IMG/VR virus record: IMGVR_UViG_3300022602_000286
Span: 1 to 31,959 of that record
Strand: one strand, 5' to 3'
DNA from: a virus
DNA: 31,959 bases
The notes beneath the pieces are model-generated. The model ran no database searches and was not told the DNA's origin. It saw nothing but the letters and a program-made list of their open reading frames with translations. Of this stretch, positions 2,998 through 19,760 are shown in pieces. How positions within the stretch are numbered: the first letter of the stretch is position 1; each line of letters begins with the position of its first letter. Both the position numbers and the translations under genes were made by a program.

Positions 2998-3288
2998 ATG
3001 AGCATACTATCAAAGCTACACCAAATTATTTCAGCTGACGTGGCCCAGCTGTTTTCACAAGCCAAAAGTGCCAGCATCAAGGCTGTTAATGATGTAGAAA
3101 AACTAGAGACGGAATTGGCTCTAGCACATCAAAAAGTCATTGACACCGCAACTGAAGCTCGTCAACATGCCGAAGCTGCCGCCGATCGTGCTCGTGCCGC
3201 AGTGCTTGAATTAGAACTAGAAGCCCGAGCCGCCGCGGAAAAAGTAGCACTACACACTCAAAAACTAGAACGTAAAGACCCAGTCTAA
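2998..3288 (+). CDS. Coiled-coil protein (96 aa)
   Basis: A 96-residue protein that is almost entirely amphipathic helix. It has a long Ala/Glu/Arg heptad pattern (EARQHAEAAADRARAAVLEL) running to the C-terminal KLERKDPV. It has no cysteines and no membrane span. A good ribosome-binding site (AAAGGAG, spacing about 6) fixes the ATG at 2998. The stop overlaps the next start as TAATG, so it is translationally coupled to the 2OG oxygenase. A small structural or assembly helper is plausible, but nothing identifies a role. Confidence 0.75.
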   Translation: MSILSKLHQIISADVAQLFSQAKSASIKAVNDVEKLETELALAHQKVIDTATEARQHAEAAADRARAAVLELELEARAAAEKVALHTQKLERKDPV

Positions 3289-3866
3289 TGGATTCTTACA
3301 AGATAGTACGCCAAGTTCTAGACAGTTCTACTCTAGCTCTAGTCAAGACTAGTCTACAGATCATGAAGGATAATCAGTATTATACTTCACGTGTTCCCCT
3401 GTCGGATCGCAGTTATTTCAGCGGATTAGATCCTGTGGAGTTTAACTGTTGGAGTTGCTATGCGCCTGTAGTCACTGAAAGTTTATTGACTTTATTAAGA
3501 GATCAAGTAGCCGAGGCCAGTGGACTAGATCTAGTTCCTACTTATAGTTACGCCCGTATCTACTGGCATGGTGCTGAAATGGTACGGCACACTGACAGAC
3601 CCAGTTGTGAAATATCAGCCACTGTGAACATCAGCATAGATCCTGAACCATGGGCCATATACATAGGGGGCTATCCTGTATTACTGTATCCCGGGGACAT
3701 GTGTGTATATCCTGGACCTCAAGTAGAACACTGGCGCGAACCTTATCAGGGCCGGGAACAAATTCAAGTATTCTTACACTACGTGGATTGTAACGGTCCT
3801 AATAGTGGTCTAGCATGGGATGGCCGCCCGCAACTGGGGCTTAAACCCACTAAGATAACTAGATAA
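3288..3866 (+). CDS. 2OG-Fe(II) oxygenase, prolyl-hydroxylase-like
   Basis: A 192-residue protein of the 2-oxoglutarate/Fe(II) dioxygenase superfamily. The metal-binding triad is visible as HTD (H101, D103 in MVRHTDRPSCEIS) and H148 (QVEHWRE). R156 in GREQIQVFLHYV is a candidate 2OG carboxylate ligand. The double-stranded beta-helix pattern runs from about residue 85 to 167, which includes YARIYWHG and LLYPGDMCVYPG. Such proteins are frequent in T4-like phages of water bacteria; substrates there are unproven, and protein prolyl or nucleic-acid hydroxylation have been suggested. It forms a two-gene unit with the coiled-coil protein and ends at a bidirectional terminator. Confidence 0.85.
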   Translation: MDSYKIVRQVLDSSTLALVKTSLQIMKDNQYYTSRVPLSDRSYFSGLDPVEFNCWSCYAPVVTESLLTLLRDQVAEASGLDLVPTYSYARIYWHGAEMVRHTDRPSCEISATVNISIDPEPWAIYIGGYPVLLYPGDMCVYPGPQVEHWREPYQGREQIQVFLHYVDCNGPNSGLAWDGRPQLGLKPTKITR

Positions 3867-8643: not shown

Positions 8644-9387
8644 TTAGCTTAACGCCGCTGCCATGGCGATTGATAATGCTTTAATATTCGTTCCGCCTAC
8701 TGTTAACGAACCGTTTACTGTAACTGTTCCGCTTACTGTCAAACTAGTTAGAGTTCCTACACTGGTCAAACTACTAGTAGTTATTGATGGATTTAGGGTG
8801 TTACCAGTTAATGACGAAGCCGCCGCTGTTACAGTAACATTTATAGATCCATCAAATGATGTACCGTTAATAGTGACCGGACTTGCAAGTTTTGTTGCTG
8901 TACTGGCATTACCTGTTAATGCACCAATAATTCCGCCATTGGCGGTGATTGCTCCATTAAATGTTGTTGCTGTAACTCCATTGCCTAGTGTAGTAATACT
9001 GCTGTTTACAACATTTGAAGCTAGAGTTGTTCCTGAAATTTGAGAAGCACTAGCATATCCACCTGTACTCCAACTGTAACCAGAACCTGTCCATTGCAAG
9101 AATCCAATTTGTGTCGGTGCGGTGATAAATCCTGTGGTACCTGCTTGGGTTTGATATAATAATTGATTTGTAGATCCTCCCGCAATATTGTTTGCTAAAT
9201 TAGAGGCCGCAATACTTGTAGGAAAAGTTACTGTAGGATATGGAAGACTGCTCCAAGCTGTAACTCCGTCTCCATATTTGATTTTATTTGTATCTGTTTC
9301 TAAACCTGGTTCGCCAGCACTTAAGATTGGATTAACATTTGTCCAATTTGCCGCTGTATCTCTTCTTAGTTTAATCTGTACTGACAT
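8644..9387 (-). CDS. Tail fibre protein with Mtd-like N-terminal domain (247 aa)
   Basis: The start is the ATG at 9387 (MSVQIKLRRD), which has AGGAG 7 nt upstream and a late promoter at 9405-9412; upstream in-frame codons lie beyond that promoter. Residues 1-50 (LRRDTAANWTNVNPILSAGE, then KIKYGDGVTAWSSLPY) match the pattern of the N-terminal domain of the Bordetella phage tropism determinant Mtd, common in phage fibres. The remainder is Thr/Ser/Gly-rich beta-helix-like repeat such as SLTSVGTLTSLTVSGTVTV. The last ten residues, LSIAMAAALS, are nearly the same as those of the next fibre gene (LAIAMAAALS). Likely a host-recognition fibre or fibre tip; the receptor is unknown. Confidence 0.8.
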   Translation of the reverse strand: MSVQIKLRRDTAANWTNVNPILSAGEPGLETDTNKIKYGDGVTAWSSLPYPTVTFPTSIAASNLANNIAGGSTNQLLYQTQAGTTGFITAPTQIGFLQWTGSGYSWSTGGYASASQISGTTLASNVVNSSITTLGNGVTATTFNGAITANGGIIGALTGNASTATKLASPVTINGTSFDGSINVTVTAAASSLTGNTLNPSITTSSLTSVGTLTSLTVSGTVTVNGSLTVGGTNIKALSIAMAAALS

Positions 9388-9404
9388 TATCGCTCCTAGT
9401 GTTA

Positions 9405-9412
9405 TATTTATT
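9405..9412 (-). promoter_or_regulatory. T4-type late promoter core AATAAATA
   Basis: Seven of eight match, 17 nt upstream of the ATG at 9387, with AGGAG in the leader. It overlaps the intergenic end of the fibre gene at 9416. Confidence 0.7.
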
Positions 9413-9415
9413 GTG

Positions 9416-10054
9416 TTATGAAAGCGCGGCAGCCATGGCAATTGCCAAAGATTTTAATTTAATTGAACCTGCATAAACATTACCACTGGAATCTACTATA
9501 GTTTGTCCGTTGACTCGTATGGCACCGGTAGTTGAAACACTTGTAAGTGTTCCTACACTAGTAATATTAGGTTGTGAGGCTGTACTAATTGTACCAGTTA
9601 ATGTTGGTGCTGTGATTGTGCCCGCAACAGATAAACTAGTCAGCGTTCCTACACTAGTAATATAAGGTTGAGCTGGAGTAGTAACTATTGCCGCCAGGCT
9701 ACTGGCTGTAACCGGGCCTTGTACAGACAACGAATTTAGAGTGCCCAGACTAGTAATATTGGGCTGAGATGCTGTGGTAATAGCCCCAGTTATTGTGTTA
9801 GCAGTGACCGAGGTTGCATTGACATTTCCAGTTACTGATCCTATTACATTACCTATTACATTACCAATCAGTGTTCCATTAAAATTTCCACCCCAAAAAT
9901 CGTTGGCATAGATAGAGCCCGCAACTTGAATATTATTAAAACTAGGTGTATCTGTAGGTAAAATTGTCCAAGCAACACCATCCCAATACCAAGTATTTGC
10001 ACCTGAGGTAAAAGTTTGATTTAATGTAGGACTACTGGGAAATATCAAAGACAT
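9416..10054 (-). CDS. Tail fibre protein with 32-residue repeats (212 aa)
   Basis: The N-terminus MSLIFPSSPTLNQTFTSGAN, then TWYWDGVAW, matches the short domain that often caps phage fibre proteins. Residues 60-80 are low-complexity (NVIGNVIGSVTGNV). Residues about 88-190 are three 32-residue beta repeats with the core QPNITSVGTLTSLSV. The C-terminus ends LAIAMAAALS, shared with the fibre gene at 8644. The start is 6 nt after the previous stop and lacks a clear ribosome-binding site, so it is probably translated by coupling. Confidence 0.8.
   Translation of the reverse strand: MSLIFPSSPTLNQTFTSGANTWYWDGVAWTILPTDTPSFNNIQVAGSIYANDFWGGNFNGTLIGNVIGNVIGSVTGNVNATSVTANTITGAITTASQPNITSLGTLNSLSVQGPVTASSLAAIVTTPAQPYITSVGTLTSLSVAGTITAPTLTGTISTASQPNITSVGTLTSVSTTGAIRVNGQTIVDSSGNVYAGSIKLKSLAIAMAAALS
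9540..9835 (-). repeat. Three 96-bp tandem repeats inside a fibre gene
   Basis: The marker ACTAGTAAT recurs at 9557, 9653 and 9749, exactly 96 bp apart, equal to 32 codons. The repeats are in frame and diverged, and could change copy number by recombination to alter fibre length. Confidence 0.8.
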
Positions 10055-10060
10055 ATACTA

Positions 10061-10726
10061 TTAACCGTATGAGCTTAATTGTCCGTTAACTGCAACAAAT
10101 GTTCCGCCAACGTTTATGATAAAGAATGTTACGTAGTTAATTTTATTAGCTACACCCGATGGTGTTATACCGCCTGACCAGTTTATAGTATAACTAACAC
10201 CGTTGATTTGAAATCCGTTTGGAATATAATTTGTAGAACCTTGCTGGATAATTAAAGTCAATGTAGTAGTTCTATTGCTAGTTGTTGGGACGTTAGTCAA
10301 ATTAACTGTAAAACTTGAAGTAACACCAGTATGATAAAAAATAGCACCGGTGCTATAGTCATGTACGACTACGCCAGTTGCTCCAGATTTAGTTTGAATG
10401 ACTTCTTGAATTTCTTGTACAGTAGTCGTTCCACCAAGTGTGATGTTACTATAGCTACCACCACTACCTGCGGCGCTGATTACTCCTCCGCTGATTGTAA
10501 TAGTCGTTCCGTCAACTTTTACTCCGCCCAATGTGCTTGTAGTTGCTGTTGGTAGAGTATAACTGCTTCCTGATGGATAGCTTAGACTGTTCCAAGGTGT
10601 TAGTCCGTCTCCGTACTTAATCTTGAAAGTATCTGTTTCTAATCCAGGTTCGCCCTGGCTCAGCGTAGGATTGTTGTTAGTCCAATTTGCCGCTGTATCA
10701 CGTCTTAGTTGTATCTTATTTGCCAT
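10061..10726 (-). CDS. Tail fibre protein with Mtd-like N-terminal domain (221 aa)
   Basis: Residues 1-50 (IQLRRDTAANWTNNNPTLSQ, then KIKYGDGLTPWNSLSY) are about three-quarters identical to the N-terminus of the fibre gene at 8644, so the two are paralogues at this end. A collar-like segment TATTSTLGGVKVDGTTITIS follows at about 60-80. The C-terminal half (from about residue 100) differs completely and reads as a compact beta domain (HDYSTGAIFYHTGV to the end, VAVNGQLSSYG). This pattern of common anchor and swapped tip suggests modular host-range proteins. GGAG lies 7 nt before the ATG. Confidence 0.8.
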   Translation of the reverse strand: MANKIQLRRDTAANWTNNNPTLSQGEPGLETDTFKIKYGDGLTPWNSLSYPSGSSYTLPTATTSTLGGVKVDGTTITISGGVISAAGSGGSYSNITLGGTTTVQEIQEVIQTKSGATGVVVHDYSTGAIFYHTGVTSSFTVNLTNVPTTSNRTTTLTLIIQQGSTNYIPNGFQINGVSYTINWSGGITPSGVANKINYVTFFIINVGGTFVAVNGQLSSYG

Positions 10727-11353: not shown

Positions 11354-11797
11354 CTATTCTTTGAAATAGTATTCGTAGTTAACGCTTGTTGGATTTTCTT
11401 TTCGGACTTTAGCGCCATTTTTCATATGAAAACGCCTAGCCATTGGAGTTTGCGGACTTAAGGTTACTATGCCTTTAAGATCAGCATAATCCTTTTTTAA
11501 CCATTCCGCGGCTTGCTGTAAAAGTGTTGCACCTGCCCCTGGTGCATAGCTCCATATTGTGTAAAAGACAGCAATTTCCTTATCCTTGTCCATATTAACA
11601 AGATCTTCTTCGGTCTCTGGAACACCTTTCAGCCATTGCATACAAGTAGCCGCTAAGACTTCTTCTCCTGCTTTGAGAATTAGAATTTCTGCGGCTTCGT
11701 TAATACGTTGTTCAAGAGGAATATGAGGACGAACAGGGTCGTCTTTAATTATTCTAACTAAAGGGTCAGTAATATCCCTAATGTGATGAAGTTCCAT
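11354..11797 (-). CDS. GNAT-like acetyltransferase (147 aa)
   Basis: The 147-residue sequence has the order of a GNAT fold. N-terminal strands and helix come first. A central strand EIAVFYTIWSYAP (about 74-86) leads into GAGATLLQQAAEWLKK (87-102), the acetyl-CoA pyrophosphate loop and helix. A later strand GIVTLSPQTPMARRFHMKNG (109-128) has the asparagine/glycine ending typical of motif B. The consensus Q/R-x-x-G-x-G/A is degenerate here (APGAGA), so cofactor binding is likely but unproven. The gene has its own late promoter (GATAAATA, 11823-11830) and lies between gp41 and the fibre genes. Its substrate is unknown. Proteins of this kind are common in T4-like phages. Confidence 0.7.
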   Translation of the reverse strand: MELHHIRDITDPLVRIIKDDPVRPHIPLEQRINEAAEILILKAGEEVLAATCMQWLKGVPETEEDLVNMDKDKEIAVFYTIWSYAPGAGATLLQQAAEWLKKDYADLKGIVTLSPQTPMARRFHMKNGAKVRKENPTSVNYEYYFKE

Positions 11798-11822
11798 GGC
11801 GATCGCTACCTTATTATATGCG

Positions 11823-11830
11823 TATTTATC
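11823..11830 (-). promoter_or_regulatory. T4-type late promoter core GATAAATA
   Basis: Seven of eight match, 25 nt before the ATG at 11797, in the 54-bp gap after gp41. It separates late structural expression from the replication genes. Confidence 0.75.
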
Positions 11831-11851
11831 AGAACCTTCTTTACAGAACGA

Positions 11852-13267
11852 TTACAGGTCCTCGCCTGGCAGGTTAGCCAGCAAATCTCTCAATTTGCTA
11901 CTAGCAACTTCTGCTTTGACTTTTGGTAATGCAATTCCATCTGTTGGTGTTTCTTGGGCTATTGTTTGTCTTTGTTTAATAGAATTTAGTAATGTTGATC
12001 CTGCACTAGGAGCGCCATTACCATAACCATCTTCTTCATCTAGATCACTAATTCTCAACGTATCGATATCAAATGCTAAATCAATTTTCATCCCAACACC
12101 ACTCGAACTACGGGTTTTCATCAGCTGAATTTGGTAACGTCCACGCTCACGCATAGCACGACTTGTAAAGATACCAAACACGTTATCAGCTGTCTGAATC
12201 TTACTCAATCCGCCTGAAATATGACTATGATCAAACTCAACTTCTTCTACAGCACCGCGATTCAGTTGTGCCGCAGTAACAAACACACAGTTCTTTTCTA
12301 CTGCTAGATTACGTAATTCTTCACTCACATACTTGTCTTTTACAAACAAGTTTTCAGCACTAATACGCTTGCTCAGTGGCATAATCAAGTCCATATAATC
12401 GACCAATAATACGTCAACCTTACGTCCCATTTTGACTTCATACTCTTTTAAGTAAGCACGAATGTCATTGGCAGTTTTACCACTTGGCATGTACTTAACC
12501 TGTAAATTTCCCGATTTTTTCCCGATAACTTTGACCTTCATTTCAACGTCATCAATGCTCTTGAAAATCTCTCTTGTTGGTATACCAGTGGTCATTGCAT
12601 CAATACGCATACAGACCAAATCTTCACTAAGCTCTAGTGTAAGGTATAATACATTGAGTCCAGCAAGAGCATAATTGACCCCAAGATTAGCAAGAAATAG
12701 AGATTTTCCAGCACCAGAACCACCAGCCCAAATGTTAAGCTCACCACGATTAAAGCCACCGTAAAGTTTATCATCAATGCTTTTCCATCCTGTCGAAATT
12801 TGTCCATTCTTGTCTTTGATGCGTAATAGTCTAGCACGAGGATCTTCAAAATAATCAGTACCCATGTCCTTCTGTAGACCAATTTGCACCGCTTTTTTGA
12901 TCTTTTCTTCGACCGGACCATACTCGCCTTTTTCCAGTAGATCGGCCGATTCTAAGATGGCTCTCTCGAGTCCTTTATGACGAATAAAAGTTTCAAAGTC
13001 ATTCAACACCCAGTCGTAGTTGTTTTCTTTAACACCTTCTGGAGGTTTCAAATTTGCACCAACTGATGCATTTACAATGTCAAATGTGGGCAAGACATTA
13101 TACTGCTCAACATACTTGTTGATAAATTCTGCCGAGTCCTGTAGCTTGCGATCAAACAATGTATGATCAAAAATACTTTGGCAACGCACAAAAGTTTCTG
13201 CGTCACTCAGCATCATTTCCAAGTACAATTTCTGTACATCATATCCGTAGTTTATGTTTTGTGTCAT
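11852..13267 (-). CDS. 41: Replicative DNA helicase, T4 gp41 / DnaB family
   Basis: A 471-residue RecA-fold hexameric helicase that unwinds DNA at the fork with the primase gp61. The N-terminal helical domain covers about 1-150. Walker A is GGSGAGKS (182-189), the catalytic Glu is within YLTLELSE (208-215 region), and Walker B is VDVLLVDYMDL (274-284). Downstream is the DnaB-like VTAAQLNRG, followed by HISGGLSKIQTADNVF, and then the basic LMKTRSSSGVG segment. Length matches T4 gp41 (475). The C-terminal tail DLLANLPGEDL is acidic. The ATG has no obvious Shine-Dalgarno and follows the carbamoyltransferase stop by 16 nt, so it may depend on upstream translation. Confidence 0.95.
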   Translation of the reverse strand: MTQNINYGYDVQKLYLEMMLSDAETFVRCQSIFDHTLFDRKLQDSAEFINKYVEQYNVLPTFDIVNASVGANLKPPEGVKENNYDWVLNDFETFIRHKGLERAILESADLLEKGEYGPVEEKIKKAVQIGLQKDMGTDYFEDPRARLLRIKDKNGQISTGWKSIDDKLYGGFNRGELNIWAGGSGAGKSLFLANLGVNYALAGLNVLYLTLELSEDLVCMRIDAMTTGIPTREIFKSIDDVEMKVKVIGKKSGNLQVKYMPSGKTANDIRAYLKEYEVKMGRKVDVLLVDYMDLIMPLSKRISAENLFVKDKYVSEELRNLAVEKNCVFVTAAQLNRGAVEEVEFDHSHISGGLSKIQTADNVFGIFTSRAMRERGRYQIQLMKTRSSSGVGMKIDLAFDIDTLRISDLDEEDGYGNGAPSAGSTLLNSIKQRQTIAQETPTDGIALPKVKAEVASSKLRDLLANLPGEDL

Positions 13268-13283
13268 TTATATATTATACATT

Positions 13284-14753
13284 CTAGTTAAAGACTTTAA
13301 CACCATAATGGCGTTCAAAGTTGCGAGCATCTGCATGATCATTCACCATAGGCTGCCCTTTAATGTTTAGACTTGTGTTCAATAGCATAGGACATCCGGT
13401 TCTTGCATACCAAAGTTCTAAGAGTTCTCTAAAAGAACTTCCATCTTTTGGTACAGTCTGTACACGTGAACTTCCATCACGATGCACGATAGCAGGATAA
13501 CGCTCAGGATTCCTACAATGAGCGACGACTTGCATATACCTACTATTATGCCAACCATTAGGCATAATAAAATAGTCATCCACAAGCTCTTCAAGTATTG
13601 CTGGAGCAAAAGGTCTAAATTCTTGTCGTTGTTTAATTGCATTTACTTTGTCCTTAATATCTTCTCCTCGAGGATCGGCTAATAAACTTCTATTACCTAA
13701 AGCACGTGGTCCAAATTCTGCTGGTCCTCGGGCAACACCACATATTTTATTATCCTCTAAATATTCAACAATTTCTTCGTTAGTAACACGATATCCCATA
13801 TCATACCCTAAGAAATTATTGGACCAATCTGTATAATGTCTCCACTCGGGATTCTTTGCCAGAACTGCACCAATAGCCGACCCTGCATCTCCTGGATTTG
13901 GATATATCCATGTATTTGCAAAATATTTTCCTGTTAGTCTATTTGCCGAACAGTTTAGGGCACATCCTCCCATTAATACTAGATTTTTACTAGGAACCAT
14001 ACGTTTGGCTTTGATTAACAGACTTTCAAAAAAATCTTCGTAGATAGCCTGTGTAGTTGCCGCTATTTCAAAACTATCTTTTACGGTCAATTCTGGATGC
14101 CAGTCTTGCACTCCTCTGTGGCAATTTCTAATAAATTTTAGATTATCATAGTTGTCAATAAAATCATGACTCATGTCAAAATATAATTTTTTTGGATCCC
14201 CATAAGCTGCCATACCCATTAAGATGTACTCATCTTCGTTAGGTTTTAATCCCACACGCTGAGTCATAGCACTATAGAATAATCCAATACTATGTGGATA
14301 ACGTAGGCTCCATTTTTTCTTAAGTTTATTGCCTTTGGCTTCCCATATGGTGGCAGTATCCCACTCACCTATAGCATCTATAACTACTATACAAGCTTCA
14401 TTAAAATCACTTGTGAAGTAGCCGCCGGCCGCATGACTAAGATGATGATCTACATATTCAATAGGTGCATCGATTTCGTATCGAGCCATGTAAATGCCAA
14501 TATCGTTATCACGACCCTTCCATCCTTGGCCGGCATACCATTGTCTTAGAGTTTTAAGAAAAGGGCGTTCGTACCAGTAGATTTTTTCTGGAGCACCATA
14601 TCGTTTGGCAGCCATAACAAGTTCTTTACAGAGGTTTCTGTCATTTTTTTGACCGCTATATCGCTCGCTATGACTGGCAAATACTAGTTTTTCATCTAGA
14701 AATACCGCTATAGCCGCGTCGTGACTGTTGCCAGATATTCCCCAACTGATCAT
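13284..14753 (-). CDS. Carbamoyltransferase, NodU/CmcH family
   Basis: A 489-residue member of the carbamoyltransferase family that moves a carbamoyl group from carbamoyl phosphate, through carbamoyl-AMP, to a hydroxyl of a sugar or small molecule. Visible family marks are GNSHDAAIA at 8-16, VDHHLSHAA at 101-109, NEDEYILMGMAAYG at 172-185, MGGCALNCSANR near 263-274 and the C-terminal-domain signature EFGPRALGNRSLLADPR near 347-363. The end LLNTSLNIKGQPMVN is also typical. The gene sits between primase and helicase and overlaps the preceding 38-residue ORF as ATGA. The acceptor is unknown; virion glycans, modified nucleotides and host metabolites are all possible. Confidence 0.9.
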   Translation of the reverse strand: MISWGISGNSHDAAIAVFLDEKLVFASHSERYSGQKNDRNLCKELVMAAKRYGAPEKIYWYERPFLKTLRQWYAGQGWKGRDNDIGIYMARYEIDAPIEYVDHHLSHAAGGYFTSDFNEACIVVIDAIGEWDTATIWEAKGNKLKKKWSLRYPHSIGLFYSAMTQRVGLKPNEDEYILMGMAAYGDPKKLYFDMSHDFIDNYDNLKFIRNCHRGVQDWHPELTVKDSFEIAATTQAIYEDFFESLLIKAKRMVPSKNLVLMGGCALNCSANRLTGKYFANTWIYPNPGDAGSAIGAVLAKNPEWRHYTDWSNNFLGYDMGYRVTNEEIVEYLEDNKICGVARGPAEFGPRALGNRSLLADPRGEDIKDKVNAIKQRQEFRPFAPAILEELVDDYFIMPNGWHNSRYMQVVAHCRNPERYPAIVHRDGSSRVQTVPKDGSSFRELLELWYARTGCPMLLNTSLNIKGQPMVNDHADARNFERHYGVKVFN

Positions 14754-14866
14754 TTATAAATGAACGGATCCCGTTCCCTCAATTCTTTTAGACGTTTTTC
14801 AAAAGCTCTTTTTGACTTCCATTTATAATAAGGACTCAAAAGAAAATTAATTATTCGTTGAACCAT
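14750..14866 (-). CDS. Small basic protein ending DPFIYK (38 aa)
   Basis: ATG at 14866 reads MVQRIINFLLSPYYKWKSKR and continues with a Lys/Arg/Glu helix to the C-terminal RDPFIYK. The stop overlaps the carbamoyltransferase start (ATGA), and the start overlaps the last 16 nt of primase, so it is locked into a translationally coupled unit. GAG lies 10 nt upstream of the ATG. Bacterial carbamoyltransferases often have a small adjacent membrane protein (DUF5989) whose C-terminus, from memory, also has a PFIY-like end. Whether this is a distant counterpart is a guess. An accessory subunit of the carbamoyltransferase is the best inference. Confidence 0.6.
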   Translation of the reverse strand: MVQRIINFLLSPYYKWKSKRAFEKRLKELRERDPFIYK

Positions 14867-15816
14867 TTTTTTGTTCTCAGTTGTATTTTAAGATTGTTAG
14901 ATTCTTTGGCACTAACAATTAACCACATGGTTGCCAGTTTACCTAATTTTATAACAGCATCGTTAATGTCTTTGACACCTTCAGGCCAATCGGGCATACT
15001 TACACTCCAACCATATTCGAGGGCTTGCTCAACGGTGCGCGGACCTTCGTGATCCCTATCGGGAACTAAAACAATCTCTTTACCTAACTGTTTTAATAAG
15101 TAGTTTTGACTGTCCTTTATCTCAGCACCAAGAAGAGCACAGCCATCAATACTTAGTGCATCAAAGGGTCCTTCGCTTACAATCACGAACTCTCTATTAT
15201 CTAGTTGATTATCGAGATTAAACACATATCCCGGTTGTTGTTCACTCAAATATTTAGGTTGTGCGTCATTAATAGCACGAGCAGTCCAGCCTGCGATTTC
15301 GCCTTTGTATAAAAACGGAATAATTAGCCTGTTGCTAAAACCAACTTTCGGAGTCCAATAGAACGGAAAATCTTCGGGAAAAAGTCGTCTACTTACCATG
15401 TATTCTAGTACAGGTATAAGTTTTTCTGGAGGGTCGGCGAGCAATTCCGTGATAGCCGTACTATCGATAGGTAATGCACGAACATCAAATTTAGGAATGA
15501 TACTACGAACTTCTGCTGTATTATTTTGGTCTAATCTTAGTGCTTCTAATCTTAACTGATTAATAATGTCATCGGGAATATTGAGATCCCGCATGAATTT
15601 ATTCATCTTTTGACTGATATGCCTACCTGGTTGCCAACTGCATTTGAATCCACAGTTAAAACAATGATAACTAACAGCATCTCCACCGTTTACGATGAAT
15701 CCGCCACGTTGTCTTTTATCATCACAACAGATCGCATTGAAGCTAATCCAACCACTTGGAGTATGTTTACGCTTTCCAGGTAAAAATTGTAGTAATGTAT
15801 CCGCTATTAGGCTCAT
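14851..15816 (-). CDS. 61: DNA primase, T4 gp61 type
   Basis: A 321-residue primase that makes RNA primers for the lagging strand with gp41. The zinc-finger region has C30, C31, C52 and C55 (SYHCFNCGFKCSW). The Toprim core shows E215 in VSEGPFDALSIDG, D263 and D265 in VPDRDHEG (261-268) and the KDIND motif at 292-296. Length is close to T4 gp61 (342). I place the start at the ATG for MSLIADTLL because relatives begin similarly. A GTG five codons earlier (15831) is possible, and neither has a strong Shine-Dalgarno. The first zinc pair is the adjacent CC rather than a spaced CxxC, so zinc ligation may differ from T4. Confidence 0.9.
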   Translation of the reverse strand: MSLIADTLLQFLPGKRKHTPSGWISFNAICCDDKRQRGGFIVNGGDAVSYHCFNCGFKCSWQPGRHISQKMNKFMRDLNIPDDIINQLRLEALRLDQNNTAEVRSIIPKFDVRALPIDSTAITELLADPPEKLIPVLEYMVSRRLFPEDFPFYWTPKVGFSNRLIIPFLYKGEIAGWTARAINDAQPKYLSEQQPGYVFNLDNQLDNREFVIVSEGPFDALSIDGCALLGAEIKDSQNYLLKQLGKEIVLVPDRDHEGPRTVEQALEYGWSVSMPDWPEGVKDINDAVIKLGKLATMWLIVSAKESNNLKIQLRTKKWFNE

Positions 15817-15846
15817 GCCTAAGTATAACACGTTATTTGATTAAGA

Positions 15847-16701
15847 TCAACTGGTAATGGTAACTGTATTAACCGTTCCGTATGTAATACTAGGGTTTTG
15901 TTGGCTACCATATTGCCAAACATCTGGAAATTTCCAACTTACTCGCATGTAATTCCATTGGTTGCCATTTACAGGATTAATGGTTGGAATATTAGTAAAA
16001 CTCAATGTAGTTGTAGTAGCTATATTGTAAGTCATACTTTGTAATTGAGTAGCATTAAGAAATGATTCTACGCTTATAGTGCTATCTTCAGTGGCTTCCA
16101 CATAAATGACACCTATAAAGTTGGTTATAGCTACATCAAAACTTATAGCGGGTGTTGGATTAGCTTCATAAAATTTACACGGGATAGCGCTAGTATGGTT
16201 GATTACATTCCCCATGAAATTGATTTCACCTTGGAATCTATCATAGACAGTTTCACCTCTAAATTTAGGAAAAGCGTTACCTATTAATTGCATTTTACCA
16301 GCGGCGCTAAATCTACTGTCAGTATAAAATAGTATATCGTTTCCATTACTGTCAACAGCACTAACACTATAAGTCAAGTACTGATCGCTTAAATCTTCTA
16401 GATCAGCTTGTGGAATGGTTACAGTTGCAAGACCCTGGATAGACATGTTAGTCATATAGTAAGGACTGCTGTCTAATTCGTTACCGGCAGCATCCATAAC
16501 AGTAATACACAGATCTACGTACTGAGTTAGATCCAGACGTTTTTGGTCAGCATTTTGTATATCAAACTGTATAGTGTTGTCTATACCATTGTAAATTTTA
16601 ACTGTTTTTGCGTACACGATTGTGTTCTCCACGGTGAAGCCAGCCAAATCGGCAATTAGTATAACTCTATTAGGATATAAATAACTTTGAACTTTTTGCA
16701 T
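15847..16701 (-). CDS. Virion structural protein, baseplate/fibre-like N-terminus (284 aa)
   Basis: The N-terminus YPNRVILIADLAGFTVENTI, then VYAKTVKIYNGIDNTIQFDI, resembles the N-terminal beta domain of phage upper-baseplate and fibre-anchoring proteins. The middle (about 130-170) has SRFSAAGKMQLIGNAFPKFR. The C-terminal half is a Thr/Asn-rich beta region. No catalytic motif is visible. The start is the ATG at 16701 (a TTG two codons upstream is less likely), with AAAGG upstream. It has its own late promoter, CATAAATA at 16721-16728, whose transcript would run on into primase. It is a lone structural gene between replication genes. Confidence 0.7.
   Translation of the reverse strand: MQKVQSYLYPNRVILIADLAGFTVENTIVYAKTVKIYNGIDNTIQFDIQNADQKRLDLTQYVDLCITVMDAAGNELDSSPYYMTNMSIQGLATVTIPQADLEDLSDQYLTYSVSAVDSNGNDILFYTDSRFSAAGKMQLIGNAFPKFRGETVYDRFQGEINFMGNVINHTSAIPCKFYEANPTPAISFDVAITNFIGVIYVEATEDSTISVESFLNATQLQSMTYNIATTTTLSFTNIPTINPVNGNQWNYMRVSWKFPDVWQYGSQQNPSITYGTVNTVTITS
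16676..16683 (+). promoter_or_regulatory. T4-type late promoter TATAAATA (exact), plus strand
   Basis: Exact consensus within the first codons of the minus-strand structural gene, pointing to the ATG at 16726. The expected start near 16689 gives a leader of about 37 nt. Confidence 0.75.
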
Positions 16702-16720
16702 TGGCAAGGACCTTTAATAG

Positions 16721-16728
16721 TATTTATG
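16721..16728 (-). promoter_or_regulatory. T4-type late promoter core CATAAATA, minus strand
   Basis: It overlaps the start codon of the plus-strand gene (ATG 16726-16728) and drives the structural gene at 16701 with a leader of about 14 nt. With the promoter at 16676 it forms a face-to-face pair. Confidence 0.75.
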
Positions 16729-17100
16729 GCAAAATTAAGAGACGATATAGAACAAAATTTACCTTTCATAAGTGTAATTAACTACGGCGATCAAGAGTAT
16801 GTTGGTATCATTATTAATCAGGATCAGTTTGTAACTAGCTTCTATGATCTTAATTCTGTTAAAACTCCTGAAGAAAGGACTAGATTCTTAGAAATAGGAG
16901 AAATTTGGTGGTGGGAGTCAAATCGCCAGTTTCCTATCAATGTTTTTTGCAAGGACGATATACATCCGTTTGCCTATGCTATAAAAACATTCAACAGTAA
17001 AGATACCCGTGTAATTCTTGGACCTGTTGTAAATTTGATGAACTTAACACTTAAACGAGTAAAACGTAAAAGTGTACAACTACTTCGCAAACCTCGTTAA
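16726..17100 (+). CDS. Conserved T4-like phage protein, unknown function (124 aa)
   Basis: The start is the ATG at 16726 (MAKLRDDIEQNLPFISVINY); a TTG 13 codons upstream would begin before the expected transcript start. Other recognisable stretches are EIGEIWWWESNRQFPINVF near 64-82 and the basic C-terminus NLTLKRVKRKSVQLLRKP. I recall proteins with these features across T4-like phages, annotated as hypothetical. It is the only plus-strand gene in the right 28 kb, and it is likely late. Its stop overlaps the convergent DnaE-like gene by 4 bp, and no terminator separates them. Confidence 0.75.
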   Translation: MAKLRDDIEQNLPFISVINYGDQEYVGIIINQDQFVTSFYDLNSVKTPEERTRFLEIGEIWWWESNRQFPINVFCKDDIHPFAYAIKTFNSKDTRVILGPVVNLMNLTLKRVKRKSVQLLRKPR

Positions 17101-17666
17101 CTATATTCGTAGCTAACTTTTTCACAGATTAAATTCATCTGTACTACAATCACATGTGCATAGGCAATAGCATGTGCTTTCTTAAAATAGTATTCGTCAG
17201 TCGTCGGCTTGACCCATATCTCGTCGAATACGTCGTTCCAGCTCTTTCCTAACAAGTGTCGTTTTGCTGGTCGAATTATCGCTATACACGCCGCGAGCTC
17301 TTCGATACTTTTCGGTTTCATCTGCCTCAATACGTTCCCGTGTCCGTTCACGTGAAAAAGTAGATTTGAGAATTCGTCCTGTTCCAATAGGTCCCATAGT
17401 GGTTCTGTCTCCATTAATTGCGTTAGGTGTTCTTTATTACGAACTCCTTCATAAACATTTACATTTAGAAAATCTATCTTAAAATAGCCTCTTTCTTCTG
17501 CTTCCTGATAATTTAGTGTACTTATTCCTGTAATAGGATTGTGCGGAATACTAGTACAATATATACCAGTGTTGTGTTTTTTAGAAGTATCAAGTGATGC
17601 ATCAATGTGTTTTAGCACACTCAATGCTCGTGTGCGATCCGCAAAGTCGATATCGATATCAGGCAT
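17097..17666 (-). CDS. Miniature DnaE (Pol III alpha)-like protein (189 aa)
   Basis: The protein begins MPDIDIDF, the signature of bacterial replicative polymerase DnaE, in which two aspartates bind metal (here D5 and D7). It then has GYFKIDFLNV (60-69), matching DnaE KFDFLGL with the third catalytic aspartate (D65). IEELAACIAIIRPAK (121-135) matches the DnaE fingers motif, and FKKAHAIAYAHVIVVQMNLI (161-180) matches the KSHAAAYALVSYQT region. All four motifs are in DnaE order but squeezed into 189 residues. The PHP domain, OB fold, tau-binding part and most of palm and fingers are missing. The start overlaps the upstream stop as TAATG. It may be a minimal nucleotidyltransferase or a non-catalytic remnant. 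I recall similar uncharacterised proteins in T4-like cyanophages. Confidence 0.75.
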   Translation of the reverse strand: MPDIDIDFADRTRALSVLKHIDASLDTSKKHNTGIYCTSIPHNPITGISTLNYQEAEERGYFKIDFLNVNVYEGVRNKEHLTQLMETEPLWDLLEQDEFSNLLFHVNGHGNVLRQMKPKSIEELAACIAIIRPAKRHLLGKSWNDVFDEIWVKPTTDEYYFKKAHAIAYAHVIVVQMNLICEKVSYEYS

Positions 17667-18840: not shown

Positions 18841-19129
18841 AGCGTTCTTTACTTAATTTGTATATCATTATAGCACGATCCAAGGCTTTTTGTAAAGTAA
18901 TATTGGTCTTAGCTTCTCTCCGAATTTGACCCCACATCTGATCGTCTCGAATCTCATCAATTAATGTACGACTGTCGATTTTCCGACCATCAAATCGTTT
19001 TGCTTCTTCAGGGTCGTAGTCCCAACCTATTGCTTGTCTAGTGCTTGGATCAGCGCCGAATTCTCTAGCATACGTAGTATTACCGTTACGTTCGTAGATA
19101 TATTTTACACCTGGTTTAAGATTGCCCAT
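18833..19129 (-). CDS. Conserved hypothetical phage protein (98 aa)
   Basis: It begins MGNLKPGVKYIYERNGNTTY with AREFGADPSTRQAIGWDYDP following, a pattern I associate with a small protein widespread in T4-like phages. The C-terminal half is helical (TNITLQKALDRAIMIYKLSK). GAGGA is spaced 8 nt from the ATG, and the start lies inside the oxygenase gene upstream. No function is known. A role in DNA metabolism is suggested only by its place in the replication chain. Confidence 0.7.
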   Translation of the reverse strand: MGNLKPGVKYIYERNGNTTYAREFGADPSTRQAIGWDYDPEEAKRFDGRKIDSRTLIDEIRDDQMWGQIRREAKTNITLQKALDRAIMIYKLSKERYE

Positions 19130-19760
19130 TCGTCAATTCCTCACGAGGTACTAGTCTAGCATCAAATGCCAATACCGTGCGATTTCCCTTGCCCTTCCAC
19201 GGATAAACTGTGTGAGGTAAATGACTAGGAAACAAAATCACTGCACCCGGTTCTGGCTTGAATTTCCAAACATCATTCATTATAAACTTACTAATATCTT
19301 TAGTCTGTGGCATTCTAAACAAAATTTGGCAATCGCTAGGCTGACTGTTTTCTGCTAATTCAGGAACTGTAATATAAATGTTACCACTAATATTACCTAA
19401 CGGGTGAGTATGCATTTCTTGATAATCGCCTTCGTATTGTCGTATTGTCCAGGCACTAACAATTTGAGGTTTGACTAGTTTTAATTCTTCTACACCCGAT
19501 TGTGCAGTAACAAGTTCTATATAACCTTGGCAAATTGATTCGAGCCATTTAACTAACCAAGTTACATCCAAATCAATTGTATTAGGAAAAACTTGTATCT
19601 GTTGACCACCACGAATACTAATAAAAGGATTATCTGCATCATTCAGTTCTGGATGGGAATGTAGTTGTTCCATTAGCCCATAGATCTGACTAAATTCTGA
19701 ATGAGGAACTTGATCTATGGCTAATATTGTAGGTTGAAAATATGCTACTTTTAATGTCAT
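19116..19760 (-). CDS. 2OG-Fe(II) oxygenase, phage type with HxH motif
   Basis: A 214-residue protein of the 2OG-Fe(II) oxygenase class often annotated as TIGR02466/2OG-FeII_Oxy_5 in phages. Visible marks are EMHTHPLGNISGNIYITVPE (H117, H119), the distal histidine in LFPSHLPHTVYPW (H183) and R194 in GNRTVLAFDAR as the candidate 2OG ligand. The usual HxD is HxH here, which is common in this subfamily. The substrate is unknown. It overlaps the upstream 168-residue gene as ATGA. It is unlike the oxygenase at 3288 in sequence, so the phage carries two separate types. Confidence 0.85.
   Translation of the reverse strand: MTLKVAYFQPTILAIDQVPHSEFSQIYGLMEQLHSHPELNDADNPFISIRGGQQIQVFPNTIDLDVTWLVKWLESICQGYIELVTAQSGVEELKLVKPQIVSAWTIRQYEGDYQEMHTHPLGNISGNIYITVPELAENSQPSDCQILFRMPQTKDISKFIMNDVWKFKPEPGAVILFPSHLPHTVYPWKGKGNRTVLAFDARLVPREELTNGQS

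What the first reader, a model, noticed from the sequence alone, without database searches (positions are those of the whole stretch)
11354..14866. Carbamoyltransferase and its 38-residue partner inserted inside the primosome operon
Primase, a 38-residue basic peptide, a carbamoyltransferase and helicase gp41 overlap or nearly abut, so a modification enzyme is co-made with the replication machinery. The peptide is missing from routine gene calls because of its length, yet its start and stop both overlap neighbours. A GNAT-like gene follows gp41. Carbamoyltransferase placement with replication rather than virion genes raises the idea that nucleotides or DNA are the acceptor, though virion glycans or host metabolites are equally open.
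Basis: partly seen in the sequence, partly recalled or inferred. Interest (0 to 1): 0.6.

Follow-up and report, generated by a model that had tools for sequence, protein, structure and literature searches.

The report
Conserved microprotein partner of phage carbamoyltransferase
A 38-residue protein that the gene-family libraries searched do not contain is real, is kept by natural selection, and almost always travels with a sugar-type carbamoyl-transferring enzyme in phages and some bacteria; it is probably that enzyme's dedicated partner, and nothing found supports the idea that the enzyme decorates the phage's DNA.

Summary
The ORFs are as described. The 38-aa ORF is a real gene, not chance. 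Of 93 viral loci with a related ~490-aa carbamoyltransferase (CTase), 64 have a short ORF ending ...LxELRKRDPFIYK directly before the enzyme and 14 more have it nearby; 6 further records carry it elsewhere. A scan started from the peptide found a CTase in 79 of 80 records. The tail is selected as protein: Pro in all four codons, Ile in all three. It also precedes the same short CTase in Edaphobacter, Geodermatophilus and Actinomadura. In 15 helicase relatives primase directly abuts helicase and both peptide and CTase are absent, so the pair is an insertion/deletion cassette. Nearly half the CTases lie outside primosomes, some among sugar-nucleotide genes, so replication context is incidental. 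DNA as acceptor is not supported: 28 related records hold one thymidylate-synthase-family gene, an ordinary one, hence no visible dCMP hydroxymethylase. Best explanation: a dedicated CTase partner whose C-terminal DPFIY tail engages the enzyme, with a sugar or glycan hydroxyl as likely acceptor. Bacterial DUF5989, just upstream of longer CTases, ends in APFIYTLF, a shared PFIY motif. Single-chain AlphaFold did not dock the tail, so binding is inferred.

The parts
14750..14866 (-). 38-aa microprotein MVQRIINFLLSPYYKWKSKRAFEKRLKELRERDPFIYK, CTase-linked
   Evidence: ORF; conserved in 78 of 93 related loci within the flanks; synonymous codon use in the tail; linked to CTase in 79 of 80 peptide-first hits
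14753..14773 (-). codons of the conserved C-terminal tail RDPFIYK, the near-invariant part
   Evidence: N-terminal parts vary in length and composition
14750..14753 (-). ATGA overlap of peptide stop and CTase start (translational coupling, inferred)
   Evidence: sequence; same arrangement in most adjacent loci
13284..14753 (-). O-carbamoyltransferase of the NodU/TobZ type, 489 aa, short form
   Evidence: H103, H107, D126, D289 invariant
14851..15831 (-). DNA primase (Toprim), flank of the cassette
   Evidence: directly joined to helicase in empty-site relatives
11852..13267 (-). DnaB-like replicative helicase (gp41 type), other flank of the cassette
11354..11797 (-). GNAT-like gene, not part of the cassette
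   Evidence: MCD C-terminal domain match; family found in 25 loci and also in loci without the CTase

Best explanation
The 38-aa protein is a dedicated partner subunit of the carbamoyltransferase. Its conserved C-terminal helix end and tail (LxELRKRDPFIYK) engage the enzyme, while the variable N-terminal part helps to place or connect it (hydrophobic and Trp/Tyr-rich in the window and many relatives, an acidic linker or a whole sugar-aldolase-like domain in others). The pair is a two-gene cassette, translationally coupled in the window, that entered or left the primase-helicase junction as a unit and also lives elsewhere in phage and bacterial genomes. The enzyme uses carbamoyl phosphate and ATP to make carbamoyl adenylate and carbamoylates a hydroxyl, most likely of a sugar or glycan; the acceptor in this phage is not known. 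Shown: gene, conservation, linkage, cassette behaviour, enzyme family and fold. Inferred: physical binding, the role of the tail, the acceptor.
For: Conservation and linkage; 79/80 from the peptide side. Works in trans: in 14 loci it is not adjacent and in 6 further records it lies outside the flanks, tail intact. Cassette: 62 helicase loci with both, 15 empty sites with neither, 0 with peptide alone, 2 with CTase alone, one of them truncated. Same motif before short CTases of bacteria. Enzyme fold and chemistry by family. Sugar context: radical SAM, epimerase, transketolase-like, NTP transferase/APH, cupin, and the tail fused to a GatZ/KbaZ-like protein directly upstream of the CTase in L081. 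Precedent: SxtJ/SxtK are proposed to act with the CTase SxtI (PMC2679770); DUF5989 ends APF[IL]Y just upstream of ~600-aa CTases.
Against: AlphaFold runs on two natural read-through chains left the tail disordered (pLDDT under 50) and gave no docking, although such a single-chain test is weak. L015/L018, with a CTase 85% identical to the window's, have lost the peptide, and L043, L073, L075, L087 and L088 also show none, so it is not always needed or is replaced. The acceptor class rests on other loci; no sugar genes were recognised among the window's own genes that were scanned.
Confidence: 0.68

Rival explanations
1. DNA modification: the CTase carbamoylates 5-hydroxymethylcytosine in phage DNA or its dNTP, as shown for a phage enzyme in 2021, and the primosome position couples it to replication.
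For: A phage CTase does this in vitro (PMC8670742) and prefers single strands; the window's CTase sits between primase and helicase.
Against: No thymidylate-synthase-family gene in 27 of 28 related records, several above 190 kb; the one found has Asn (GIPFNIASY), the dUMP type. The peptide-CTase pair also occurs outside primosomes. Empty-site relatives do without it. The records may be incomplete, and the window is a 32-kb fragment.
Confidence: 0.1
2. The peptide is the acceptor: the CTase carbamoylates the peptide itself (for example at the invariant Tyr), as HypF does on the C-terminal Cys of HypE (recalled).
For: Only the C-terminal tail is conserved, and Tyr is invariant; present in trans.
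Against: The terminal Lys is missing in several bacterial copies and replaced by Asp, Asn, Tyr or His in others, so a Lys acceptor is unlikely; solved members of the enzyme family act on antibiotic or sugar hydroxyls (titles).
Confidence: 0.1
3. The peptide is a replication protein (clamp, primase or helicase ligand) and the CTase is a passenger.
For: Window position between primase and helicase.
Against: 30 of 43 non-primosome loci also have the peptide next to or near a CTase; 15 primosomes without CTase lack the peptide; bacterial copies.
Confidence: 0.03
4. The ORF is only a coupling leader for translation of the CTase, with no function for its product.
For: ATGA overlap in most loci.
Against: Amino-acid-level conservation with full synonymous turnover and persistence when unlinked from the CTase start.
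Confidence: 0.02

Closest known systems
NodU/TobZ-type O-carbamoyltransferases (PF02543 + PF16861; TobZ, GdmN, VtdB, NovN, NodU, WapO)
   Same: Both domains, overall fold (Foldseek TMq about 0.7 although 120 residues of the query are peptide and linker) and conserved His/Asp positions of the metal-ligand type
   Different: About 490 aa, shorter than the solved members (576-702 aa); NCBIfam NodU model matched far below its cut-off; constant microprotein partner
DUF5989 (PF19451) / SxtK-type small proteins next to CTases
   Same: Small protein immediately upstream of a CTase, C-terminal APF[IL]YT; of 18 loci 16 have the CTase 11-20 nt downstream and one 249 nt
   Different: DUF5989 has a hydrophobic, membrane-type segment; profiles align only over [DA]PFIY with 28% probability, so common descent is not shown; goes with longer ~600-aa CTases
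Phage 5hmC carbamoyltransferase (eLife 2021, PMC8670742)
   Same: Phage-encoded CTase of the same Pfam pair
   Different: That enzyme is 63 kDa and co-occurs with a thymidylate synthase homologue; here none of the hydroxymethylase type was found
Cyanophage and pelagiphage 'Nol-like' carbamoyltransferases (P-SSM2, S-SSM7, S-CAM8, HTVC008M)
   Same: Same superfamily, T4-like phages
   Different: 27-33% identity, 500-600 aa, in sugar or other contexts, and no DPFIY microprotein found beside them

Membership tests
O-carbamoyltransferase (Carbam_trans_N + Carbam_trans_C) | both Pfam domains over the cut-off | tested here: met
   144.2 and 161.4 bits
O-carbamoyltransferase (Carbam_trans_N + Carbam_trans_C) | fold of solved members | tested here: met
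   GdmN, VtdB, NovN, TobZ are the top Foldseek hits of an orthologue, L080
O-carbamoyltransferase (Carbam_trans_N + Carbam_trans_C) | carbamoyl transfer from carbamoyl phosphate | not testable with these tools
   needs an assay
Phage 5hmC carbamoyltransferase system | co-encoded dCMP hydroxymethylase (thymidylate synthase homologue with Asp) | tested here: not met
   0 of 11 and 1 of 17 related records, the one with Asn; fragments, so absence is not proof
Phage 5hmC carbamoyltransferase system | modified cytosine in virion DNA | not testable with these tools
   needs LC-MS
Phage 5hmC carbamoyltransferase system | residues at the W408/G421/R423 positions (TobZ numbering) | not tested
   no TobZ alignment or figure at hand
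DUF5989 (PF19451) | match to the Pfam model | tested here: not met
   none of 28 peptides matches
DUF5989 (PF19451) | small protein directly upstream of a CTase with a C-terminal PF[IL]Y | tested here: met
   analogy, not shown homology

The most novel reading that the evidence does not exclude
A short C-terminal PFIY motif is a general handle for NodU/TobZ-type O-carbamoyltransferases: two unrelated families of tiny proteins (the phage and bacterial DPFIY microprotein, and membrane-type DUF5989/SxtK) carry it, and without such a partner these enzymes are inactive or misplaced.
Probability: 0.4. Interest if true: 0.72.

Novelty: new variant of a known kind. Interest (0 to 1): 0.55.

Why it matters
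It adds a conserved microprotein family, absent from Pfam, PHROGs and NCBIfam, to a widespread enzyme class that modifies glycans, antibiotics and phage DNA. If the tail is required, it would offer a testable explanation for the unexplained small genes beside O-carbamoyltransferases (DUF5989, SxtK). It also warns against reading a replication-operon position as evidence for DNA modification.

Tried and rejected
Peptide search by tblastn in named phages gave nothing (too short for BLAST). MAFFT of peptides with many CTases misplaced the peptides; repaired by fewer CTase rows. AlphaFold docking on natural read-through chains of L080 and L076 did not place the tail. Tet/JBP search (PF12851) rang nowhere, controls included, so it shows nothing. 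Neighbour families in bacterial loci (GDSL-like, DUF6071, MFS, integrase) did not settle the acceptor. Homology of peptide and DUF5989 rejected as unproven. No paper in the library mentions DPFIYK, RDPFIY, APFIYTLF or DUF5989.

Full report
The observation. On the minus strand the window carries primase (15831-14851), a 38-codon ORF (14866-14750), a carbamoyltransferase (14753-13284), a DnaB-like helicase (13267-11852) and a small GNAT-like gene (11797-11354). The small ORF overlaps primase by 16 nt and the CTase start by 4 nt (ATGA). Pfam and PHROGs name the primase, helicase and CTase with strong scores; the last gene resembles the C-terminal domain of malonyl-CoA decarboxylase, in the window just below the curated cut-off, in two relatives over it. 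The window is a 31,959-base virus record with T4-type terminase, UvsX-like recombinase and single-strand binding protein, so a T4-like phage fragment.

The peptide is a real protein. Relatives of the CTase were fetched from viral contigs (93 loci with the window). In 64 a short ORF ending in the same tail lies directly before the CTase, in 14 it is farther away in the flank, in 15 it is not in the flank; after thinning to CTases under 85% identity the numbers are 41, 7 and 5 of 53. Six of the 15 records hold it outside the flanks, with tails such as LKKRDPFIYN; two more (L007, L014) are cut short at the relevant side. In 66 distinct copies the tail is near invariant in amino acids while codons vary freely: Pro uses four codons, Ile three, Leu and Arg six (D, P and Y were part of the search pattern, F and I were free to vary). 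L015 and L018, close to the window, have lost the ORF cleanly.

The peptide implies the enzyme. All but one (cut at a contig end) show a short basic ORF; 71 have a CTase within the fetched stretch (53 adjacent), and 8 of the other 9 records hold a PF16861 CTase elsewhere; the last is a 16-kb fragment. Some of these records were also in the first set, so the two tests are not fully independent.

The pair is a cassette. Of 80 relatives of the window's helicase, 62 have primase, peptide, CTase and helicase; 15 have primase 6-91 nt from helicase and neither peptide nor CTase; none has the peptide alone; two have the CTase without peptide, of which one (L303) is the L015 record and one (L307) is truncated; one is truncated before the helicase. 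On the CTase tree primosome and other contexts interchange at least 3 times by well supported branches and 6 times by parsimony. Outside primosomes the pair sits near radical SAM enzymes, epimerases, transketolase-like, NTP-transferase/kinase and cupin genes. In L081 the tail is the C-terminus of a 377-aa protein whose N-terminal part matches GatZ/KbaZ-like aldolase subunits, directly overlapping the CTase start.

Beyond phages. Short CTases of Edaphobacter, Geodermatophilus, Reyranella, Actinomadura, Actinokineospora and others have an upstream ORF ending DPFIY, DPFMYK, DPHLYK or similar, or a downstream one ending RDPFIYP. The long CTases of P-SSM2, S-SSM7, S-CAM8, HTVC008M and Mosig have none nearby. 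In 18 loci with DUF5989 its C-terminus is APF[IL]Y followed by T and two further residues, and 17 have a ~600-aa CTase just downstream. Profile comparison aligns only DPFIY with APFIY at 28% probability: a shared motif in a shared position, not demonstrated kinship. SxtJ and SxtK beside the CTase SxtI were proposed in 2009 to act with it (PMC2679770).

Mechanism. The enzyme belongs with TobZ, GdmN, VtdB and NovN by sequence and predicted fold and should form carbamoyl adenylate from ATP and carbamoyl phosphate (family knowledge). The peptide is predicted as a helix followed by a flexible tail. In two single-chain AlphaFold runs on natural read-through stretches (L080, L076; stop codons read as Gly) the tail stayed below pLDDT 50, so docking is not supported by that test; it is a weak test. 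Near-obligate linkage, also in trans, with conservation of the tail only is best explained by a dedicated partner.

Acceptor. The 2021 discovery that a phage CTase converts 5hmC to 5-carbamoyloxymethylcytosine (PMC8670742) makes DNA a fair hypothesis, but the expected hydroxymethylase is not seen: 0 of 11 and 1 of 17 related records contain PF00303, and that one reads GIPFNIASY with the Asn of ordinary thymidylate synthase. Records may be incomplete. Sugar contexts elsewhere, and known O-carbamoylation of LPS heptose attributed to WapO in Pseudomonas (PMC8005017), make a sugar hydroxyl the better guess.

Noticed in passing
L060, L063, L080, L090, L091, between peptide and CTase: A ~77-aa membrane protein resembling DUF2061 (1.7e-4, just under the cut-off) lies between peptide and CTase.
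   Followed up: partly
L081:4871-6004: The CTase-linked tail is fused to a GatZ/KbaZ-like protein, a possible natural fusion pointing to a sugar pathway.
   Followed up: partly
window 16687-17100 (+): A 137-aa ORF on the opposite strand to the operon is conserved in 48 of 93 related loci at the same place.
   Followed up: no
window 17097-17666 (-): A 189-aa DNA-polymerase-like protein (PHROG 11778; weak DNA pol III finger match), unusually small for a phage polymerase.
   Followed up: no
window 3288-3866 (+): Ferrochelatase-like gene (PHROG 2954).
   Followed up: no
window 19116-19760 (-): 2OG-Fe(II) oxygenase of the PF13759 type.
   Followed up: no
window 8644-9441, 10061-10726 (-): Two presumed structural proteins share an N-terminal stretch like IKLRRDTAANWTN.NP.LS.GEPGLETDT, suggesting duplication.
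   Followed up: no
L125:2518-4524 of the reverse strand (Reyranella): DUF5989 ending APFIYTLF 19 nt before a 611-aa CTase, preceded by a 143-aa protein in the position of SxtJ.
   Followed up: partly
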